From positions 1 through 33,437 of the IMG/VR virus record IMGVR_UViG_3300027983_000058: DNA of 33,437 nucleotides; one strand, 5' to 3'. How positions within the stretch are numbered: position 1 is the stretch's first letter; each line of letters opens with the position of its first letter. Origin of the DNA: a virus. The notes below the pieces were generated by a model. It was given only the letters and a program-made list of their open reading frames with translations. It searched no databases and was not told where the DNA came from. A program made the position numbers and the translations under genes. Positions 9,886 through 25,632 of this stretch are shown piece after piece.

Positions 9886-9978
9886 TCAATCAGAATCTTC
9901 GTCGTAACCTTTCCAAAACCTTTTGGTTATGAATGCCCACCCGAAACTAAGGATCATCGCCGCTATAACGACTTTAAG
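9886..9978 (-). pseudogene. 5'-truncated small membrane protein
   Basis: The frame LKVVIAAMILSFGWAFITKR ends WKGYDEDSD with its TGA in the box at 9873-9889. It loses its start exactly where the foreign segment begins. A plus-strand copy of the same beginning, with its ATG, exists at 33389 (MLKVVI). The gene was probably cut by the join at about 9976-9980. Confidence 0.6.
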
Positions 9979-11270
9979 TATGCCGTGTTGCCACCACCAC
10001 CTGCAATTCTAACAGATGCCAATGAATAGCCGGTGCCACCGTTGGTTATTTCTACTGAATTAACTCTATATGTAATGTCAAATGTTGCACCCACTCCAAT
10101 TGCACCTACTCCAACAGGCGCAGCAGATTCTGAGATTGCAGTTGCAACAGATGACAATCCCGGTAATGTTAAATATGAACCTGATGATACGATTCTGTAA
10201 GTTAAAATAGATCCTGGAGTAGTTAATGTAGATAACACCTGAATAATACATGCGCCACCGCCGGTTGACAATACACCACCTGTAACGCTGAGTAAATCTC
10301 CAGGGTAGTAGTTTGCACCTACACCGTTAAGAACAACAGTGTCGACACTTATCTTTAAAAATCCAGCAAACCCGTCACCGGAAGTAGGAGACGATTCAAT
10401 AGCTGCTAGTGTACAGTCAGCTGCACCGTCGTTGTATGTTAGCACTTTCTTGTAAGGCCCTAATGTTATAGGAGCCTCTTTTACCAATTCTTCAGCACGT
10501 TTTAATGCGGCTTCTAGTGTACGATAAGCATACGCCAATGCTCGCCCTTGAAGAGCTTTTGAAACTCCTGTTCGCTCATCGGCACCTGACAACGCCACAT
10601 ATAAGTTAACACTTGATCCGAACGCAGCATTATCAACATATCGTTTTGTTGCAGCAGTCAATCCGTCAAAATTTATATCATCATCCGGCTCAGGATCTCT
10701 TGAAAGAATCAACGGACCGCTCATTCGGCCCAATGCAGCATTGACTTGTCCTGTTTCCGGATCAATTGCATTTGCACCAGCTCGAGCTATTTTACTATCG
10801 GCATAGGACTTGTTAACTAGCTCGTGCTTGTAAATTGGTAACAACGGTGATATTGTAGTACCTGCATCATAAATCCTATACTGCAGACCACCGGAACGCA
10901 TAGACAAGTCACCACCAAGCTGTGGTGATGTATCTGCTGATATTTCAGCAAAGTCTGCATTAATAGTAATTTCATTAGGATTAGTAATAAAATCAATACT
11001 AATACCGTTACCGGGAGCTAGTGTTTTAAATGCTACCCCTGATTCCGTATTGTTAACAGTTACTAAGGGAGTTGATCCAGTAGTTGGATCGTTTTGTCCA
11101 ACATAGGTCGGTGGTGTATAATCGAGGCCTATAAACTGTAATCTCTCACCTAATCCTAAGGAACTGTATAGTTCTTGGAAGTTATCGTTTACTTTTCTAA
11201 ACGAGTCGCGAATACTATCGCCAGTGCCGTCGTTACCTACGACGCCGATATCAATTGATTTTCTTGCCAT
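9963..11270 (-). CDS. T4-like tail-fibre/virion protein, C-terminally truncated
   Basis: 435 aa starting MARKSIDIGVVGNDGTGDSI. The N-terminal SIRDSFRKVNDNFQELY segment, the QLGGDLSM repeat and GLTAATKRYVDNA are typical of large structural or fibre proteins of T4-like marine phages. Those proteins are normally longer. Here the last ten codons run into the neighbouring sequence, so the gene is cut at about 9976. AT-rich codon use unlike the flanks. Its product would be a virion adhesin component. Confidence 0.75.
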   Translation of the reverse strand: MARKSIDIGVVGNDGTGDSIRDSFRKVNDNFQELYSSLGLGERLQFIGLDYTPPTYVGQNDPTTGSTPLVTVNNTESGVAFKTLAPGNGISIDFITNPNEITINADFAEISADTSPQLGGDLSMRSGGLQYRIYDAGTTISPLLPIYKHELVNKSYADSKIARAGANAIDPETGQVNAALGRMSGPLILSRDPEPDDDINFDGLTAATKRYVDNAAFGSSVNLYVALSGADERTGVSKALQGRALAYAYRTLEAALKRAEELVKEAPITLGPYKKVLTYNDGAADCTLAAIESSPTSGDGFAGFLKISVDTVVLNGVGANYYPGDLLSVTGGVLSTGGGACIIQVLSTLTTPGSILTYRIVSSGSYLTLPGLSSVATAISESAAPVGVGAIGVGATFDITYRVNSVEITNGGTGYSLASVRIAGGGGNTAYLKSL

Positions 11271-11664: not shown

Positions 11665-11973
11665 ATGTTTGGATTTATTAAGAAATTATTTGGCGGCACT
11701 ACTGTAACTAACAAAGAAGCGGGAGTTCAACTTGAACAATCAGCACCTTACAAAGTACCAGAACCTGCTGCTACAACACCTATTCCGCTAGTTGTTGATA
11801 AAGCAACAGAAGCAGTAGTTAAGTCTTTGGTAAAACCAGCGGCAAAGAAGAAATATCATGCAAAGAAGAAAGCTGGCACTGCTAAAACAGCACCAGCTAA
11901 AAAGCCAGCTGCTAAAACAGCACCAGCTAAAACAGCACCAGCTAAAAAGCCTAAAGCAAAACCAGCAGCTTAA
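11665..11973 (+). CDS. Lys/Ala/Pro-rich basic protein
   Basis: 102 aa. The N-terminus MFGFIKKLFGG is amphipathic. The C-terminal 40 residues repeat AKTAPAKKPA-like units, resembling histone-H1-like tails. AAAGGAG precedes the start by 8 bases, a clear Shine-Dalgarno unlike the flanking phage genes. It might bind DNA or RNA. The last bases overlap the UV endonuclease gene tail to tail. Confidence 0.65.
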   Translation: MFGFIKKLFGGTTVTNKEAGVQLEQSAPYKVPEPAATTPIPLVVDKATEAVVKSLVKPAAKKKYHAKKKAGTAKTAPAKKPAAKTAPAKTAPAKKPKAKPAA

Positions 11974-12992
11974 TATTGATGTTGTAGTGCGAACGATGCT
12001 AAATTTTTAGCCTTTGATTCACACATAATATCAAAACTATCTCTAAAACTCATAGCCCATTCATTCACTGCTGTATTCCAGTAGAAGTCTGAATGTGCTC
12101 TGAGTTTTTGCTTTTTATAACCCTGAGACAACAATAGTGCATGATCCGGCTTTACACTAGTATCATGTCCTACAAGATAATCTTCACGACTAACAGAGTA
12201 ATGCATTGTAGGTCGTACGCCTCGCCATGAATCAATAACACGGTTAACTCGATCGTCAGTAGGAAGAATGTACTCCCCTTCTCGAATCCAGTGGTGATGA
12301 ACGTCTAGCACAATAGGCAGTATATCAGCAAGCTCAATACAGTCGGTTAAGCCCCATGAGTTTTCTTCGTTTTCGATGGTAATACAGTTACGAGCTTCTA
12401 CACTAAGACGCTTATATGCCGCCCTAATGCCGTCTGGCCCAAGTTTTCCGGAGATGTGTACATTAATCTTAAAGTCTTGGAACGACTTTCCATATCCCAT
12501 CCAGCGAGCCATATCTGCATGATATTCAAATTCTTCGATGCTACGCTCTACTATACCAGGGTTAATAGATGCCAGCACAGTAAACTGACCAGGATGGAAA
12601 GACAACCGAACACCATTCTTACGAGCCAGATCTCCGATTTGTCCAAATGCTCTTTCACAATAGGCTCGTACATCGGGATCCCGCCAACACCCGCCCCAAA
12701 CTGACTGAGTATAGACAGGTAGTATATCGCTACTGAGTCGTACCATTCTAAGATTTTCATCGAGTGTTCCTACCCTCTCAACGAGCTTGCGAGTAGATTC
12801 TATGTTACCTACCATTAGGTCATATAATTTTTGTTCCGCAACTTGTTTACTCTGTCTATTTAACCAAGCAACTGTAGTGCTGCCGGTGTTAAGAGCTTTA
12901 CACTCGTCTGTAGGTTTGATACCGTTAACTTGATCAGGCTGATCGATCCATTTACAGGCAAAGCCGAGGCGTTTAATCATAGATTCTTTCAT
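11970..12992 (-). CDS. uvsE: UV DNA damage endonuclease (UvsE/UVDE family)
   Basis: 340 aa with the UVDE TIM-barrel pattern: RLGFACKW near residue 8, FHPGQF at 132-137, KINVHISGK at 175-183, ITIENEE at 204-210, LDVHHH at 229-234 and MHYSVS at 263-268. The His, Glu and Asp residues would bind the metal cluster. The enzyme nicks DNA 5' of UV photoproducts, starting alternative excision repair. Length is close to the family norm. Its ATG overlaps the stop of the upstream partial gene (TAATG). It lies in the foreign segment. Confidence 0.85.
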   Translation of the reverse strand: MKESMIKRLGFACKWIDQPDQVNGIKPTDECKALNTGSTTVAWLNRQSKQVAEQKLYDLMVGNIESTRKLVERVGTLDENLRMVRLSSDILPVYTQSVWGGCWRDPDVRAYCERAFGQIGDLARKNGVRLSFHPGQFTVLASINPGIVERSIEEFEYHADMARWMGYGKSFQDFKINVHISGKLGPDGIRAAYKRLSVEARNCITIENEENSWGLTDCIELADILPIVLDVHHHWIREGEYILPTDDRVNRVIDSWRGVRPTMHYSVSREDYLVGHDTSVKPDHALLLSQGYKKQKLRAHSDFYWNTAVNEWAMSFRDSFDIMCESKAKNLASFALQHQY

Positions 12993-14540: not shown

Positions 14541-15026
14541 TTACCAATCAATCAGAACGGAAACACCTTCATAATGTGCGCAGTTATCGTGATGAAAATC
14601 TGGAATATGCCAACCATGTCTACTGATGTCAGCGAAGGCATTCTCAGATTCTTCCGTGTTGGCCAGAGGTTGGATTACAACGAACCAACCGATTTTATAC
14701 GGATTTTTCTTATACCTTGGGTTCTTCACCACGACTGAGGGTATCTTCATTTTATTCTCAAATGATTCCTTATGTAGATATGGGTATTTGACCACCACAC
14801 CCAACTTCTCGTTCTTGTAGAAGTAATTCGACGAACACCAGTTGGTCGGAACTTTTTTGAATCCGAGCTTTGTGAGAAAGGTCCGATTGTAATCCAGCGG
14901 AGCCAGTATCTCCGCCACCGAATTAATCAAGCGCTCCGCCTTCTCACGTTGTTCTTTGGTAAGATATACCTCAGCAATTACTTGCCCGGCGTCGTTGCGG
15001 CAAATGGTTTCAATCTTCATGCTCAT
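14541..15026 (-). CDS. minimal protein-kinase-like protein
   Basis: 161 aa. GVVVKYPYL carries a possible ATP-site lysine (K80), DFHHDNCA (residues 143-150) resembles a catalytic loop D-x4-N, and the protein ends with VLIDW, placed like the DFG strand. The chain stops there, so no C-lobe is present. It looks like a degenerate kinase-fold domain seen in phage genomes. Activity is doubtful. Box at 15045-15060, ATG at 15026 or 15020. Confidence 0.5.
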   Translation of the reverse strand: MSMKIETICRNDAGQVIAEVYLTKEQREKAERLINSVAEILAPLDYNRTFLTKLGFKKVPTNWCSSNYFYKNEKLGVVVKYPYLHKESFENKMKIPSVVVKNPRYKKNPYKIGWFVVIQPLANTEESENAFADISRHGWHIPDFHHDNCAHYEGVSVLIDW

Positions 15027-15474: not shown

Positions 15475-15792
15475 TTATGCCGCGACCGGCACTTTCTTCT
15501 TATGTGAGCGCTTCACCGGCACCGCGGGATTCACCGGCACCGCGGGATTCACCGGCACCGCGGGATTCACCACATTATAGACACCAAGGCTGCGGCCACG
15601 AGTTTCGGTGGTCTTCTGGAGACCGACTGTGAACAGTGTTCCGAGGCTCAACATCTTCTTGACACGCATATATAGCGTAATGTATTGCACACCACTGTTC
15701 AATGCCCGAAGGTCGTTGAACGTGAAGTTCCCAGCGGGAACATTCAGTGCAAAGTTATACTTAACTCGCGATTTCTTATTTTTCTTTTTCAT
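15475..15792 (-). CDS. hypothetical protein with NPAVPV repeats
   Basis: 105 aa. A basic N-terminus (MKKKNKKSRVKYNFALNVPA), a middle domain (FNDLRALNSGVQYITLYMRV), and a C-terminal tail of three NPAVPV units followed by KRSHKKKVPVAA. The repeats make a proline-rich linker to a basic tail. The middle resembles small winged-helix-like folds only weakly. It overlaps the next gene's end by about 17 bases. Confidence 0.65.
   Translation of the reverse strand: MKKKNKKSRVKYNFALNVPAGNFTFNDLRALNSGVQYITLYMRVKKMLSLGTLFTVGLQKTTETRGRSLGVYNVVNPAVPVNPAVPVNPAVPVKRSHKKKVPVAA
15512..15570. repeat. 18-bp tandem repeat, three units
   Basis: Unit TTCACCGGCACCGCGGGA repeated exactly three times, in frame, encoding NPAVPV on the minus strand. 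The same unit length (18 bp, three copies) occurs at 28459-28518 with unrelated sequence. Confidence 0.9.
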
Positions 15793-15958
15793 ATAGTTTT
15801 AGTTGGTCCTTGTAATACCATACAGCGCTCGGAACATCTTTGATCCGAACGCTGACGGCGTTAAATTCTGTGGTTGTGGCTGTGCAGACGACTTCACCCA
15901 ACTCACCGAAGTGTGGAGCACCTGCGTCTACAATCTTTACTGTTTGTTTAGCTTTCAA
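15776..15958 (-). CDS. KOW-like small phage protein
   Basis: 60 aa: VKIVDAGAPHFGELGEVV followed by AVWYYKDQLKLYEKEK is the pattern of KOW-like beta-barrel proteins, with the glycine-centred loop and the late YxxxxLxL strand. It might bind RNA or ribosome components (inference). It overlaps the preceding gene by 4 bases. Confidence 0.65.
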   Translation of the reverse strand: MKAKQTVKIVDAGAPHFGELGEVVCTATTTEFNAVSVRIKDVPSAVWYYKDQLKLYEKEK

Positions 15959-18694: not shown

Positions 18695-19207
18695 TCAAGC
18701 GCAGAATCGACTTACAAGGAAAGAAAGTTTGTAACACATCCCGCGTGATAAATTTGTATTTCGGGACAGGACGCAATACATGGACTTCATGTGCATCTGA
18801 ATCTTTGCGAGCTTCTCATCCTCAGGCTTGACAACATTGCCACGCTTCGTGTTACACGGTTGGCAGGTGGGTCGCATGTTCCACACCGTATTGGTTCCAC
18901 CCTTGGATGCAGGAATGATATGGTCCCGATTCATCAGAATGTAACTTCCTTTGCGTTCAGCAAACAAATCGAGGTGCAGGGCCTTCGCTTCTCCGGCGTC
19001 TTGGGTCAGAATGACTTTGGTTCCTTTGAGACCACAGTAATAGCATTTGCATCCATGGACTCCGAACACCTTCATGCGACCGAGCGCATATAACTTCCCA
19101 TCGTGTTCCAGTTTGTTGCACTTATGTCGGGCCATGGCCTTGTCTAGTACGTAGTCTAAAGGCAGCTCACCAAGAATAGTGGAGGTCGGATTGTGTTTCA
19201 GCTTCAT
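18695..19207 (-). CDS. HNH endonuclease
   Basis: 170 aa. CKCYYCGLKG (C55, C58) and RPTCQPCNTKRGN (C115, C118) form the zinc-binding pairs, and RDHIIPASKGGTN (D95, H96) with the downstream N110 form the HNH catalytic core. It probably nicks or cuts DNA, either as a homing enzyme or in phage DNA metabolism. It has the phage box (19231-19247), unlike a recent invader, so it seems integrated into phage regulation. Confidence 0.8.
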   Translation of the reverse strand: MKLKHNPTSTILGELPLDYVLDKAMARHKCNKLEHDGKLYALGRMKVFGVHGCKCYYCGLKGTKVILTQDAGEAKALHLDLFAERKGSYILMNRDHIIPASKGGTNTVWNMRPTCQPCNTKRGNVVKPEDEKLAKIQMHMKSMYCVLSRNTNLSRGMCYKLSFLVSRFCA

Positions 19208-20064: not shown

Positions 20065-20214
20065 ATGGGGAGAAAACGATTATATCGGACAAAAGAAGAA
20101 CTCAATGAAAAATCAAGAAATCGTTCTAAGCGATACTACAACCGACACAGAGAACAGATACTCAAACGACAAATGCAGCGATATTGGAATTTACGGTTTA
20201 AAAAACAAATTTAA
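20065..20214 (+). CDS. basic 49-aa ORF overlapping the homing endonuclease
   Basis: MGRKRLYRTKEELNEKSRNR and then RYYNRHREQILKRQMQRYWN, in the frame one base behind the GIY-YIG gene. This very basic YY-x-x-H pattern is often found at the N-terminus of phage homing endonucleases. It may be a separate peptide or the N-terminus of the nuclease detached by a frameshift. Confidence 0.45.
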   Translation: MGRKRLYRTKEELNEKSRNRSKRYYNRHREQILKRQMQRYWNLRFKKQI

Positions 20215-20932
20215 TGGTAAATGGTATATTGGTCAGACCAAAAACAGTATTCAGAGGCGCTGGGGCCAATATAAAAGATTAGACTGTAAGAATCAACCTA
20301 AGCTTCTAAGAGCTCTTAAAAAATACGGATACGACGGATTTGAAAAAATTAATCTAGAAATCTGTCCTCCTAATAGAGAAGTTCTCAATAGTAGGGAAGA
20401 TTATTGGATAACTGAAAAAAATTCTATCAAAGGTGGTTATAACATAAGAACGGGTGGCTTTTCAGGAAAATTCAACAGTGAAACTAGAGCCAAAATGTCA
20501 GCTTCTCACAGAGGAAAAAAATTTACAAAAGAACATAGAAAGAAATTATCCGATTCTGCTCGTCGAAGACCCCGATGGTCTCACACGTCTGAGGCTAGGA
20601 TAAAAATGAGTAATTTTCAAAGGGGTAGGAATGTTGGGAAAAATAATGGTAACTATGGAAAGTTTTGGATAACAAACGGGGTGGACGCCAAGTTGGTTAG
20701 CCCAACCAGTATCATTCCAACCGCTTGGTCAGTTGGGGGAAAGCCATGTTCAGATATCGTCAAAAAGAAACTTAGCACCGCCATGTCAGGTAGAGTGTTG
20801 TCACAAGAAAGAGTTAAGAAAATTAGAGCTCGAATGTTAACCAACAACCATTTTAAAGGAAAAACGCACAGTGAGGATACGAAACGTATAATTGGAGAAA
20901 AAGCAAGATTAAGATATTTAAATAAATCTTAA
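20105..20932 (+). CDS. GIY-YIG homing endonuclease with NUMOD3 repeats
   Basis: 275 aa. GIY at residues 28-30 and YIGQT at 41-45, R51/R52 and E98 supply the catalytic GIY-YIG core. Residues about 117-175 and 225-260 hold repeated NUMOD3 units (NSETRAKMSASHRGKKF, TSEARIKMSNFQRG, HSEDTKRIIGEKAR) that contact DNA. FWITNGVDAKLVSP is a domain common in phage homing enzymes. It cuts DNA to spread its own gene. AT-rich codons, opposite strand to its neighbours and no phage box point to transfer. Confidence 0.9.
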   Translation: MKNQEIVLSDTTTDTENRYSNDKCSDIGIYGLKNKFNGKWYIGQTKNSIQRRWGQYKRLDCKNQPKLLRALKKYGYDGFEKINLEICPPNREVLNSREDYWITEKNSIKGGYNIRTGGFSGKFNSETRAKMSASHRGKKFTKEHRKKLSDSARRRPRWSHTSEARIKMSNFQRGRNVGKNNGNYGKFWITNGVDAKLVSPTSIIPTAWSVGGKPCSDIVKKKLSTAMSGRVLSQERVKKIRARMLTNNHFKGKTHSEDTKRIIGEKARLRYLNKS

Positions 20933-23277: not shown

Positions 23278-24801
23278 TCACTTTAAAACTTGGTAAAGAA
23301 TCTTCTTCCAGTCGTCCACGCCAACCTTCTTGTCGTCAAGAATCTTGAAAATAATTGACGAGCGACCAGTCGATCCATAGGCTTGAAGAATCTTTTGAGC
23401 GGCGAACTTACGAACCTGCTTCGGCTCCAAGGTCACAGTCGAAGGACCAACCTTCATGGTGCGGCAACCTTCGGCGAACTTATACAACTGAGCCATGATG
23501 TCATTGACTTGCTTCATAGCGTCACAGATGCGCGAAGCGTGACCTTGGGCCATGGTGGCAATTTCAAAATCAAACTTCTCGGTCAAGTAAGCGAAGAAGC
23601 CAGTGTAGTTCTTCTCGCCAACACCATCGAAGTGCCAATCCATATAAACATCAATCACCTTGTCGATGCTTGAGATTTCGGACTTGGCACGGTGCAGGAA
23701 CAAGTAGTGAGCAGACTTCACCTTGCGGATGTTCTGACCATCATTGTAATAAACGCACAAGCCCTCTTGGTCCCGAAGAACCTCGACAGCATCGCGCATT
23801 TCAGCCACAGAGTCATACTTGAAGGTGCGAGGGCGACGAAGTTCCATCGCGTCGGCAATCTTATCCAGATTAGACTGGGACTGCATATAGTAATTCTCGT
23901 GGTTGATAATGGCAATCAAAGCCATGTCCGGCTCGTCACCATAGTCAATGACGATACGATTGGTCGGAGACATCCACTCGAACACATAGGATGCATCGGA
24001 GTTCTCATCATGTTCCAGAGCACGGATAAACACCCCATACTTCTCCATCAAGAAATCAATCTCGTAACCATTCGGTTGTAAGCGAGCGTTCACGGTGCCA
24101 CGAGTGCGAACCACGGTGTGACCCTTGTAACGGGAGAAAATCAAAGTGGAGTTGTGGACTAGAATTCCATTCGCAAAGAAATTCTTGGTATCAGTCTGAA
24201 CATCATATAACTTTGAATTAGACTGTATTTTGTTGATACTTTTTAATTCATCCTTCTGCCGCAGCTCGTCCACGCGGCGGTAACAATTCAAATTCTTGAC
24301 CCAAACGCGATGGTTGCCAGTCAGTTTTATTTTTTTCCCATCTTCAAGTTCGAGTTCATACCATTCGACATTTGGGGATTCCTTTACTGAGTGTGCTTTT
24401 ATTTGCGTAAATTTTTGTTTGTTGGTTGTGTGACAGAACCCAAGAACTTTTCCTGAGAACTTAGAATCGCATATCTCTCGAATAGTCACTTCGCCATCAG
24501 TGGTGACGAGTGTGGTGTCGCCGTCACAACAGCCGTCCAGCTTCTCAACCATGGTAGCACCAGTCAAGTCCTTTGGGGCTGGATAAAGCTCCGGCTTCTC
24601 GTCCCAATTAAAGAACTTGCGGAAGGATAGCGACACAGGATTGCCGTCCATATCCCAAACAGAGGACCGGAAAATATCAGTTTCCTTGGACCAAGCGGTT
24701 CCAATAAATTGTGGTTGAACCAACACAACTTCATGCTCACCAACGAAATGCTGGTGAGTCATGAAGTTCTCAGACGAAATGGATAGGAGGTTGACCTTCA
24801 T
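23278..24801 (-). CDS. rnlA: T4 RnlA-type RNA ligase 1 interrupted by a mini-intein
   Basis: 507 codons from the ATG at 24801 (MKVNLLSISSENFM); the longer TTG frame runs through the box. Removing the 127-aa intein leaves 380 aa, close to T4 Rnl1 (374). Ligase motifs: I EKLDG-STLI with lysine K87, RTRGT, III FEWMSPTNRIVIDY, IV EGLCVYY, V RKVKSAHYLFLHR. It seals 5'-phosphate and 3'-OH RNA ends using ATP; in T4 it repairs tRNA cut by host defence. The intein splits motif I just after the catalytic KLDG, so unspliced protein should be inactive. Confidence 0.9.
   Translation of the reverse strand: MKVNLLSISSENFMTHQHFVGEHEVVLVQPQFIGTAWSKETDIFRSSVWDMDGNPVSLSFRKFFNWDEKPELYPAPKDLTGATMVEKLDGCCDGDTTLVTTDGEVTIREICDSKFSGKVLGFCHTTNKQKFTQIKAHSVKESPNVEWYELELEDGKKIKLTGNHRVWVKNLNCYRRVDELRQKDELKSINKIQSNSKLYDVQTDTKNFFANGILVHNSTLIFSRYKGHTVVRTRGTVNARLQPNGYEIDFLMEKYGVFIRALEHDENSDASYVFEWMSPTNRIVIDYGDEPDMALIAIINHENYYMQSQSNLDKIADAMELRRPRTFKYDSVAEMRDAVEVLRDQEGLCVYYNDGQNIRKVKSAHYLFLHRAKSEISSIDKVIDVYMDWHFDGVGEKNYTGFFAYLTEKFDFEIATMAQGHASRICDAMKQVNDIMAQLYKFAEGCRTMKVGPSTVTLEPKQVRKFAAQKILQAYGSTGRSSIIFKILDDKKVGVDDWKKILYQVLK
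24151..24531 (-). other. mini-intein within the RNA ligase gene
   Basis: 127 residues. It begins CCDGDTTLV (Cys1, block A with GDT at 4-6), holds TGNHRVWV (block B, T71 and H74), LYDVQTDTKNFFANG (block F), and ends ILVHN before the +1 Ser of the host protein (block G). There is no DOD or HNH endonuclease insert, so it is a splicing-only Hint domain. It sits between Gly90 and Ser218 in motif I. Confidence 0.92.
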
Positions 24802-24820: not shown

Positions 24821-24837
24821 TTTTTTATAAAAGTCAA
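24821..24837 (-). promoter_or_regulatory. promoter-like box of the ligase gene
   Basis: TTGACTTTTATAAAAAAGC on the minus strand, 20 bases before the ATG at 24801. It directly adjoins the end of the 24841-25632 gene. Confidence 0.7.
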
Positions 24838-24840
24838 GGA

Positions 24841-25632
24841 CTAAACACCCAGATAATTCCTATTGGCGGTGAACAAGTTACGAACGGACGATGAAGCGTG
24901 TTTAGCCAATCCTTTCGTATTGGAGTATACCCGATAGTCGAGCATGGTTGTGTATTTAAAATCATCATGGAACCAGCTCCACGTCTTACGACTTGTAGCA
25001 CCCCCACTCCATTCGGCGCAGATAACCTTAAATCCAGTCTTGTTCAGAATGAACCCATTATTGTGCTGTAAGTCAAAAATCCGGTCCAACAGAAAAATAT
25101 CGTCCTTGATGGTCTTTGATTCCTTGAGCTTAATCAGAAAGGCAGTTCCTTCCGCCCAACACTCACCACCATAACTGTCTTCCCAATCTATTGCGGGGTC
25201 TTTGAACATATTTTCAATGGTTCCCAAATCCACTTCATCGTGACCACCACGACGACGGAATTCTGCTTTGTATTTAGCATATTTCTTACTGTTGGCCTCA
25301 TATTCGAGTTCTTCATCCTCTGTGGCTTCGGCCGCACCCCAATCACGGCAGTTATCAACCACTCCAGCGTGCCTATCGGTGAAGTGACGAATCTCGCGAC
25401 GAACCGAATATTCCAGAGCGTCAATGACCTCAGCTTTCACTTCAGCCAAGACACGGTTAAACGTCTTATCAATCGCGGTCTCCTTAGCATGTGGTAGAAA
25501 GTTGGTTACAGCATATCCGTAGGTGGCTAGCCCAATGGTGCGGAACCAAACTTCATTCATGACGTAGAAATCAAAAAACAGGCTTGCCAGCCGTTTTGGA
25601 TATTTAAGACTTTTGTGTTTTTTGTAACTCAT
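24841..25632 (-). CDS. hypothetical 263-aa phage protein
   Basis: Basic N-terminus (MSYKKHKSLKYPKRLASLFF), a long helical and charged middle (ATEDEELEYEANSKKYAKYK), then GGECWAEGTAFLIKLKESKT, FLLDRIFDLQHNNGFILNKT and GFKVICAEWSGG. The DLQHNNGFI segment with a preceding Asp is the most distinctive motif. I do not recognise the family. Under a box at 25651-25667, just upstream of the ligase gene; a shared role is only a guess. Confidence 0.65.
   Translation of the reverse strand: MSYKKHKSLKYPKRLASLFFDFYVMNEVWFRTIGLATYGYAVTNFLPHAKETAIDKTFNRVLAEVKAEVIDALEYSVRREIRHFTDRHAGVVDNCRDWGAAEATEDEELEYEANSKKYAKYKAEFRRRGGHDEVDLGTIENMFKDPAIDWEDSYGGECWAEGTAFLIKLKESKTIKDDIFLLDRIFDLQHNNGFILNKTGFKVICAEWSGGATSRKTWSWFHDDFKYTTMLDYRVYSNTKGLAKHASSSVRNLFTANRNYLGV

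What the first reader, a model, noticed from the sequence alone, without database searches (positions are those of the whole stretch)
24151..24531. Mini-intein splitting the active site of an RNA ligase
A 127-residue Hint domain with complete splice junctions (Cys1, TxxH, HN, +1 Ser) sits between the catalytic KLDG and the following Ser of nucleotidyltransferase motif I. It has no homing endonuclease. Inteins in phage DNA metabolism enzymes are known; one in an RnlA-type ligase at motif I is unusual as far as I can tell. Splicing would gate a repair enzyme that counters tRNA-cleaving defence, perhaps in response to redox through the Cys1-Cys2 pair.
Basis: partly seen in the sequence, partly recalled or inferred. 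Interest (0 to 1): 0.8.

Follow-up and report, generated by a model that had tools for sequence, protein, structure and literature searches.

The report
Contiguous mini-intein in phage RNA ligase
A phage RNA-repair enzyme is interrupted inside its active site by a small self-removing protein segment (an intein), and every other close relative of this segment that I found is broken into two separate genes, usually around a DNA-cutting enzyme gene, so this one looks like a split intein that nature joined back together.

Summary
The spliced product is an Rnl1-type RNA ligase (T4 Rnl1, Z 23.5).

The site is not unique. Motif I (KxDG or KxHG, then C...N, then S/T/C) is hit repeatedly in phage RNA and DNA ligases: a LAGLIDADG intein in Omegavirus mycobacteriophages, and about 30 viral contigs with split inteins, most with a VSR-like homing endonuclease gene between the halves ('fractured genes').

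The window intein groups with the Rnl1-type split inteins (97/93 support; 51-61% identity), although its ligase is nested among intein-free ligases. It was therefore acquired horizontally. It is the only contiguous member found, and is short only at the split point. Best reading: a re-fused, endonuclease-free split intein; that direction is inferred by parsimony, because the AU test does not exclude an ancestral cis lineage.

Splicing competence is predicted (intact catalytic residues, pLDDT 93.6), not shown. Redox gating and an anti-defence role remain speculation.

The parts
23281..24801 (-). Precursor gene: Rnl1-type RNA ligase with in-frame intein, 507 aa (ATG at 24801; a TTG at 24837 would give 519 aa; stop 23278-23280)
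24532..24801 (-). N-extein, 90 aa, ending in motif I KLDG (KLDG = 24532-24543; Lys87 is the predicted adenylated lysine, equivalent to T4 Rnl1 K99)
   Evidence: alignment with intein-free homologues; alignment to T4 Rnl1
24151..24531 (-). Mini-intein, 127 aa: Cys1 24529-24531 (Cys2 next to it), block B TGNH 24310-24321, C-terminal His-Asn 24151-24156
   Evidence: exact empty sites (13, 40); AF2 model pLDDT 93.6 and Foldseek to NrdJ-1 fused intein (95, 100)
24230..24250 (-). Point where the split relatives are broken into IntN and IntC; the window lacks about 8-10 residues here (end of IntN, start Met and first residues of IntC)
   Evidence: alignments
23281..24150 (-). C-extein, 290 aa, beginning with the +1 Ser (24148-24150): nucleotidyltransferase motifs III/IV/V and C-terminal domain
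23950..23982 (-). Ligase motif III region FEWMSPTNRIV (T4 Rnl1: FEFVAPTNRIV)
23746..23766 (-). Ligase motif IV EGLCVYY
23716..23724 (-). Ligase motif V KVK

Best explanation
The segment is a class-1 cis-splicing mini-intein. By the standard pathway (N-S acyl shift at Cys1, transesterification to Ser+1, Asn cyclisation helped by the penultimate His, final O-N acyl shift) it should excise itself and join KLDG to STLIF, creating motif I of a phage Rnl1-type ATP-dependent RNA ligase that is not expected to work before splicing. It belongs to a phage intein family specialised for ligase motif I. All other members found are split: ligase N-half plus IntN, usually a VSR-like homing endonuclease gene, then IntC plus ligase C-half. 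It reached this ligase by horizontal transfer, and it is most likely a re-fused split intein that lost the endonuclease and spacer, so it is now probably immobile and kept because it splices. Shown here: position, empty sites, family, predicted fold, horizontal origin, and uniqueness among the members found. Inferred: splicing activity and the split-to-cis direction (about 0.6 on its own).
For: Intein and ligase models above cut-offs. Exact empty sites in 93/93 loci. AF2 of the intein alone pLDDT 93.6, pTM 0.83, best PDB match the fused NrdJ-1 split intein, E 6.7e-10, TMq 0.83. Extein model best matches T4 Rnl1, Z 23.5, rmsd 2.4 over 239 residues. Split inteins at the same site in Rnl1-type ligases, 51-61% identical to the window intein; one, L231, lies in the window's own ligase superclade with a complete VSR-like endonuclease between the halves. 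The endonucleases of the split loci tested are all homologous, E 1e-8 to 1e-63, which argues for one fractured ancestor. Intein tree groups the window with Rnl1-type split inteins, 97/93 (75), 92/95 with more rows. Extein tree nests the window ligase among intein-free ligases (100/99) and rejects a clade with the split ligases, p-AU 2.7e-34. Degradation stages exist: full endonuclease (L199, L204, L231), truncated (L196/L111), 125-nt spacer with none (L203), fused (window).
Against: No splicing was measured. The intein alignment is short (about 137 columns): AU tests do not reject placing the window outside all split ligase inteins (p 0.21 and 0.24), so an old contiguous lineage remains possible. 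In the AF2 model of the whole precursor the intein itself is low-confidence (pLDDT under 50), probably for lack of aligned rows. The window is a 33-kb metagenomic viral record and no second copy was found.
Confidence: 0.8

Rival explanations
1. The window intein is an ancestral contiguous (cis) intein of ligase motif I; the related split inteins arose from such forms by endonuclease invasion and fracturing, possibly more than once.
For: AU tests do not reject the window intein outside all split ligase inteins. Contiguous inteins at the same kind of site exist in other lineages: Omegavirus ligases (34) and a KxDG-bearing protein in a bacterial MAG (L134, 44).
Against: Every relative found with IntN queries, which cannot favour split forms, is split. 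The endonucleases of the split loci are homologous to each other, so fracturing looks like one old event. The best trees put the window among Rnl1-type split inteins. The nearest outgroup used, NrdJ-1, is split too.
Confidence: 0.25
2. The intein is a functional post-translational switch: splicing is delayed or blocked by oxidation (Cys1 with Cys2 or another Cys), so the ligase appears only under certain conditions.
For: Insertion in the catalytic motif makes activity depend on splicing. Cys1, Cys2, Cys21 and Cys83 are invariant in the Rnl1-type group of six. A mycobacterial DnaB mini-intein is a documented redox sensor through its catalytic Cys (PMC6195587).
Against: Conservation of these Cys is also expected from common descent. 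Inteins often sit in conserved motifs because homing targets conserved DNA. The documented sensor uses two cysteines far apart in sequence (Cys48 and Cys118), not a vicinal pair. Nothing here tests regulation.
Confidence: 0.12
3. The intein has lost activity and the gene is a dead or hypomorphic ligase.
For: No splicing data; GC of the insert (0.41) differs from the exteins (0.48), which shows only that it is foreign.
Against: All catalytic residues, the open frame, the ligase motifs and a confident Hint fold are intact.
Confidence: 0.05

Closest known systems
Fractured-gene split inteins with a free-standing homing endonuclease gene (Dassa et al. 2009, NAR 37:2560; paper not held, known from its title in citations and from memory)
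   Same: Relatives of the window intein at the same ligase site have exactly this arrangement
   Different: The window form is one contiguous gene with no endonuclease and no spacer
NrdJ-1 split intein (PDB 8ubs)
   Same: Best sequence match to a solved structure (E 7.8e-13) and best fold match; similar C-terminal block NFFANxILVHxS
   Different: From a ribonucleotide reductase (by its name); naturally split, fused only artificially for the structure; 31% identity
Omegavirus mycobacteriophage RNA ligase inteins (Bobby gp147, KashFlow gp155, Hannaconda gp150 and others)
   Same: Contiguous intein at the same motif I position, KLHG|C...HN|S
   Different: Different RNA ligase family (PF09414), full-size intein with LAGLIDADG endonuclease, distant intein sequence; annotated only as RNA ligase or HNH endonuclease
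T4 RNA ligase 1 (Rnl1)
   Same: Fold (Z 23.5), motif I KxDG at K99, motifs III-V
   Different: No intein; window protein is well below the T4-RnlA equivalog cut-off
PolB mini-intein of Salicola phage SCTP-2 versus split PolB intein of phage MIJ3 (PMC6892783)
   Same: A published pair of a contiguous mini-intein and a related split intein with an endonuclease gene in one phage gene family
   Different: DNA polymerase B, not a ligase; direction of change not discussed in the passages read

Membership tests
Class-1 mini-intein | Cys/Ser at position 1 and block A | tested here: met
   CCDGDT; TIGR01445 above cut-off
Class-1 mini-intein | Block B TxxH | tested here: met
   TGNH at intein residues 71-74
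Class-1 mini-intein | C-terminal HN and +1 Ser/Thr/Cys | tested here: met
   VHN|S; TIGR01443 above cut-off
Class-1 mini-intein | Intein-free alleles joined exactly at the junction | tested here: met
   93/93 loci with a recognisable motif I
Class-1 mini-intein | No endonuclease domain; Hint fold | tested here: met
   127 aa; predicted model pLDDT 93.6; top Foldseek hits are inteins
Class-1 mini-intein | Self-excision and extein ligation | not testable with these tools
   needs expression
Fractured-gene split intein | Two separate genes carrying IntN and IntC | tested here: not met
   one open frame of 507 codons
Fractured-gene split intein | Free-standing endonuclease gene between the halves | tested here: not met
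   no spacer in the window; present in L195, L199, L204-L207, L210, L212-L214, L231
Fractured-gene split intein | Intein sequence in the same clade | tested here: met
   97/93 with Rnl1-type split inteins; AU does not exclude an outside position
Rnl1 RNA ligase family | PF09511 profile above cut-off | tested here: met
   39.7 bits vs 28.3
Rnl1 RNA ligase family | Motifs I, III, IV, V and T4 Rnl1 fold | tested here: met
   (predicted model)
T4 RnlA equivalog (TIGR02308) | Score above equivalog cut-off 242 bits | tested here: not met
   45.2 bits
T4 RnlA equivalog (TIGR02308) | tRNA repair together with a polynucleotide kinase | tested here: inconclusive
   no kinase hit among the larger window ORFs scanned; AAA_33 hits in 6 of 8 related contigs, one about 2 kb from the ligase in G005
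Class-3 intein | No nucleophile at position 1 | tested here: not met
   Cys1 present

The most novel reading that the evidence does not exclude
A natural reversal: a split, endonuclease-fractured intein has fused back into a contiguous cis-splicing mini-intein after moving into a new ligase lineage, as one end point of a ligase-motif-I intein family that invades phage nucleotidyltransferases of several families (Rnl1-type and other RNA ligases, ATP- and NAD-dependent DNA ligases).
Probability: 0.6. Interest if true: 0.65.

Novelty: new variant of a known kind. Interest (0 to 1): 0.55.

Why it matters
A contiguous form, a spacer-only split form and full endonuclease-bearing split forms exist at one codon position in one enzyme family, so split-to-cis evolution of inteins can be tested directly with matched natural proteins. 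The family also shows that motif I of covalent nucleotidyltransferases is a general target for inteins across RNA and DNA ligases. Practically, it offers a small (127 aa) natural cis intein and many close naturally split partners with known junctions.

Tried and rejected
Chance ORF or constitutive ligase insert: rejected by exact empty sites in the homologues. Searches with the intein alone or the C-extein alone found no confirmed relatives in viral contigs, because the single-protein mode uses exact peptide stretches; alignment queries worked. Protein search of named phages gave only weak Rnl1 relatives; of the intein hits there, the Lak phage one lies in a UvsW-like helicase and the Salmonella S16-type ones are annotated as helicase, and the Streptococcus GXN1 hit lies in a terminase-like frame, none in ligases. 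A pattern scan for KxDG|CxxGDT in bacterial genomes gave 65 stretches, of which only one (L134) looks like an intein; the rest look like chance. Literature searches found no report of an intein in an Rnl1-type ligase, but the library is open-access only and the key fractured-genes paper is not held. The Kelley 2016 mycobacteriophage survey lists a nucleotidyltransferase intein in cluster C1 and has no match for 'ligase'. The AU test could not settle whether the window intein nests within or outside the split inteins.

Full report
WHAT IS THERE. On the minus strand of the window one frame of 507 codons (24801 to 23281) encodes an RNA ligase with a 127-residue insert at residues 91-217, window 24531-24151. 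Pfam Intein_splicing (47.8 bits, cut-off 35.8) and NCBIfam intein N- and C-terminal models are all above cut-off. The host protein matches PF09511 RNA_lig_T4_1 (39.7, cut-off 28.3) and PHROG 562, RNA ligase.

EMPTY SITES. Two scans of IMG/VR brought in homologues of the ligase, the closest about 60-65% identical at protein level. Those inspected lack the insert and join exactly: 93 of 93 loci with a recognisable motif I (some contigs fetched twice) read K(L/I)DG immediately followed by Ser. The patterns of the second scan lie outside the insert, so insert-bearing alleles would have been found as easily. This fixes the borders and rejects the idea that the segment is part of the ligase.

THE LIGASE. 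The profile of homologues aligns to T4 Rnl1 (PDB 2c5u, E 3e-11) with KLDG over T4's KEDG (K99) and with motifs III, IV and V. An AF2 model of the precursor is confident in most of the exteins (mean block values mostly 80-98) and its best structural match is T4 Rnl1 (Z 23.5, rmsd 2.4 over 239 residues), ahead of fungal tRNA ligase (Z 19.6). It is an Rnl1-type ligase but not a T4-RnlA equivalog (TIGR02308 45 bits, cut-off 242). The catalytic motif is interrupted between G90 and S218, so the unspliced chain should not be a normal ligase (inference).

THE INTEIN. All class-1 residues are present: Cys1, TGNH, His-Asn, Ser+1. Folded alone with its relatives as alignment it gives a Hint model with mean pLDDT 93.6 and pTM 0.83. 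The best solved match is the artificially fused NrdJ-1 split intein (E 6.7e-10, TMq 0.83), which is also the best sequence match (E 7.8e-13).

THE SITE IS A RECURRENT TARGET. Six Omegavirus mycobacteriophages were hit by the intein query, five under genes annotated RNA ligase and one under HNH endonuclease; the two that I translated (Bobby, KashFlow) carry an intein with LAGLIDADG endonuclease in a different ligase family at the same point, KLHG|C...VHN|S, while related phages such as Thibault and Courthouse match without it. A pattern for KxDG|CxxGDT and two alignment scans then uncovered about 30 viral contigs with related inteins. Their host proteins include Rnl1-type ligases (PHROG 562), PF09414 RNA ligases, ATP-dependent DNA ligases (PF01068) and a NAD-dependent DNA ligase (PF01653). 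The N-junction is K-x-D/H-G (two read KxDGEN).

THE RELATIVES ARE SPLIT. In these loci the first gene ends roughly 96-105 residues into the intein (later in L204), and in most a second gene starts with IntC (YDxQT...NFFANGILVHN) and continues with the rest of the ligase. Between them, in most, lies a gene with a VSR-like nuclease motif (IEVNGDFWHANP); those compared are homologous to one another (E 1e-8 to 1e-63). This is the fractured-gene arrangement. In five N-half loci (L209, L211, L215, L233, L241) no IntC was found by my simple pattern. L231 is the most telling: a split intein with complete endonuclease gene in a ligase of the window's own superclade, C-extein SLLIVSKYKGELICRTRGTVDARQMANGHEI against STLIFSRYKGHTVVRTRGTVNARLQPNGYEI. 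Decay stages exist as well: L196/L111 has a truncated endonuclease frame, L203 only a 125-nt spacer.

TREES. The intein tree puts the window with the Rnl1-type split inteins (97/93; 92/95 after adding L228-L231 and L234), nearest to L231 with weak support (82/51). The ligase tree puts the window inside a group of intein-free ligases (100/99); forcing the window and the split ligases together is rejected (p-AU 2.7e-34). So intein and host have different histories: the intein was acquired horizontally. Insert GC is 0.41 against 0.48 in both exteins, consistent with this.

DIRECTION. The window intein is the only contiguous member in this clade, and relative to the split ones it is short only at the split point. 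One shared type of endonuclease across the split members argues that fracturing is old. Parsimony therefore favours re-fusion with loss of the endonuclease. The AU test, on about 137 columns, does not exclude a contiguous lineage outside all split ligase inteins (p 0.21-0.24). I put re-fusion at about 0.6.

FUNCTION. Most likely mechanism: spontaneous cis-splicing after folding, giving an active RNA ligase. Whether the ligase repairs tRNA in this phage is not shown; no kinase partner was seen among the window ORFs scanned, although AAA_33 kinase-type hits occur in 6 of 8 related contigs. A redox switch is possible in principle (precedent: DnaB intein, PMC6195587), and Cys2, Cys21 and Cys83 are conserved in the Rnl1-type group, but conservation by descent explains this equally and no test was possible.

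NOVELTY. Mini-inteins, split inteins, and inteins in catalytic motifs are known; a published pair of mini and split PolB inteins exists (PMC6892783). I found no report of an intein in an Rnl1-type ligase or of natural re-fusion, within an open-access library. I file it as a new variant of a known kind.

Noticed in passing
L105:905-3307 (MK524516 gp147), L106:956-3358: Omegavirus mycobacteriophage RNA ligases carry an unannotated LAGLIDADG intein at motif I (KLHG|C...HN|S).
   Followed up: partly
L214:2617-5985: A split intein with VSR-like endonuclease gene interrupts motif I (KIDG|C) of a NAD-dependent DNA ligase (LigA).
   Followed up: partly
L109, L110, L115, L117, L121, L124, L129, L134: Inteins at a KxDG|C...N|S junction in proteins of the DUF6267 kind (PF19782 tested on L124 only), split in L124 and contiguous in a bacterial MAG (L134); the KxDG site suggests DUF6267 may be a covalent nucleotidyltransferase.
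   Followed up: no
G007 (contig of L200) 14734-14991 and 15661-15957; G001 46545-46631: Further intein halves elsewhere in related contigs, hosts not examined.
   Followed up: no
window 18698-19207 (-) and 20105-20929 (+): Free-standing HNH and GIY-YIG/NUMOD3 homing endonuclease genes a few kb from the ligase.
   Followed up: no
window 11973-12992 (-): UvdE-type UV endonuclease gene (E 8e-36), next to a T4 gp9/10-like baseplate protein at 9966-11270.
   Followed up: no
L006: The ligase homologue in this contig has a frameshift relative to its near-identical relatives, possibly a sequencing error.
   Followed up: no
window 24844-25632 (-): 263-aa gene directly upstream of the ligase, only a weak match to an unknown PHROG and not found near the ligase in related loci.
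   Followed up: partly
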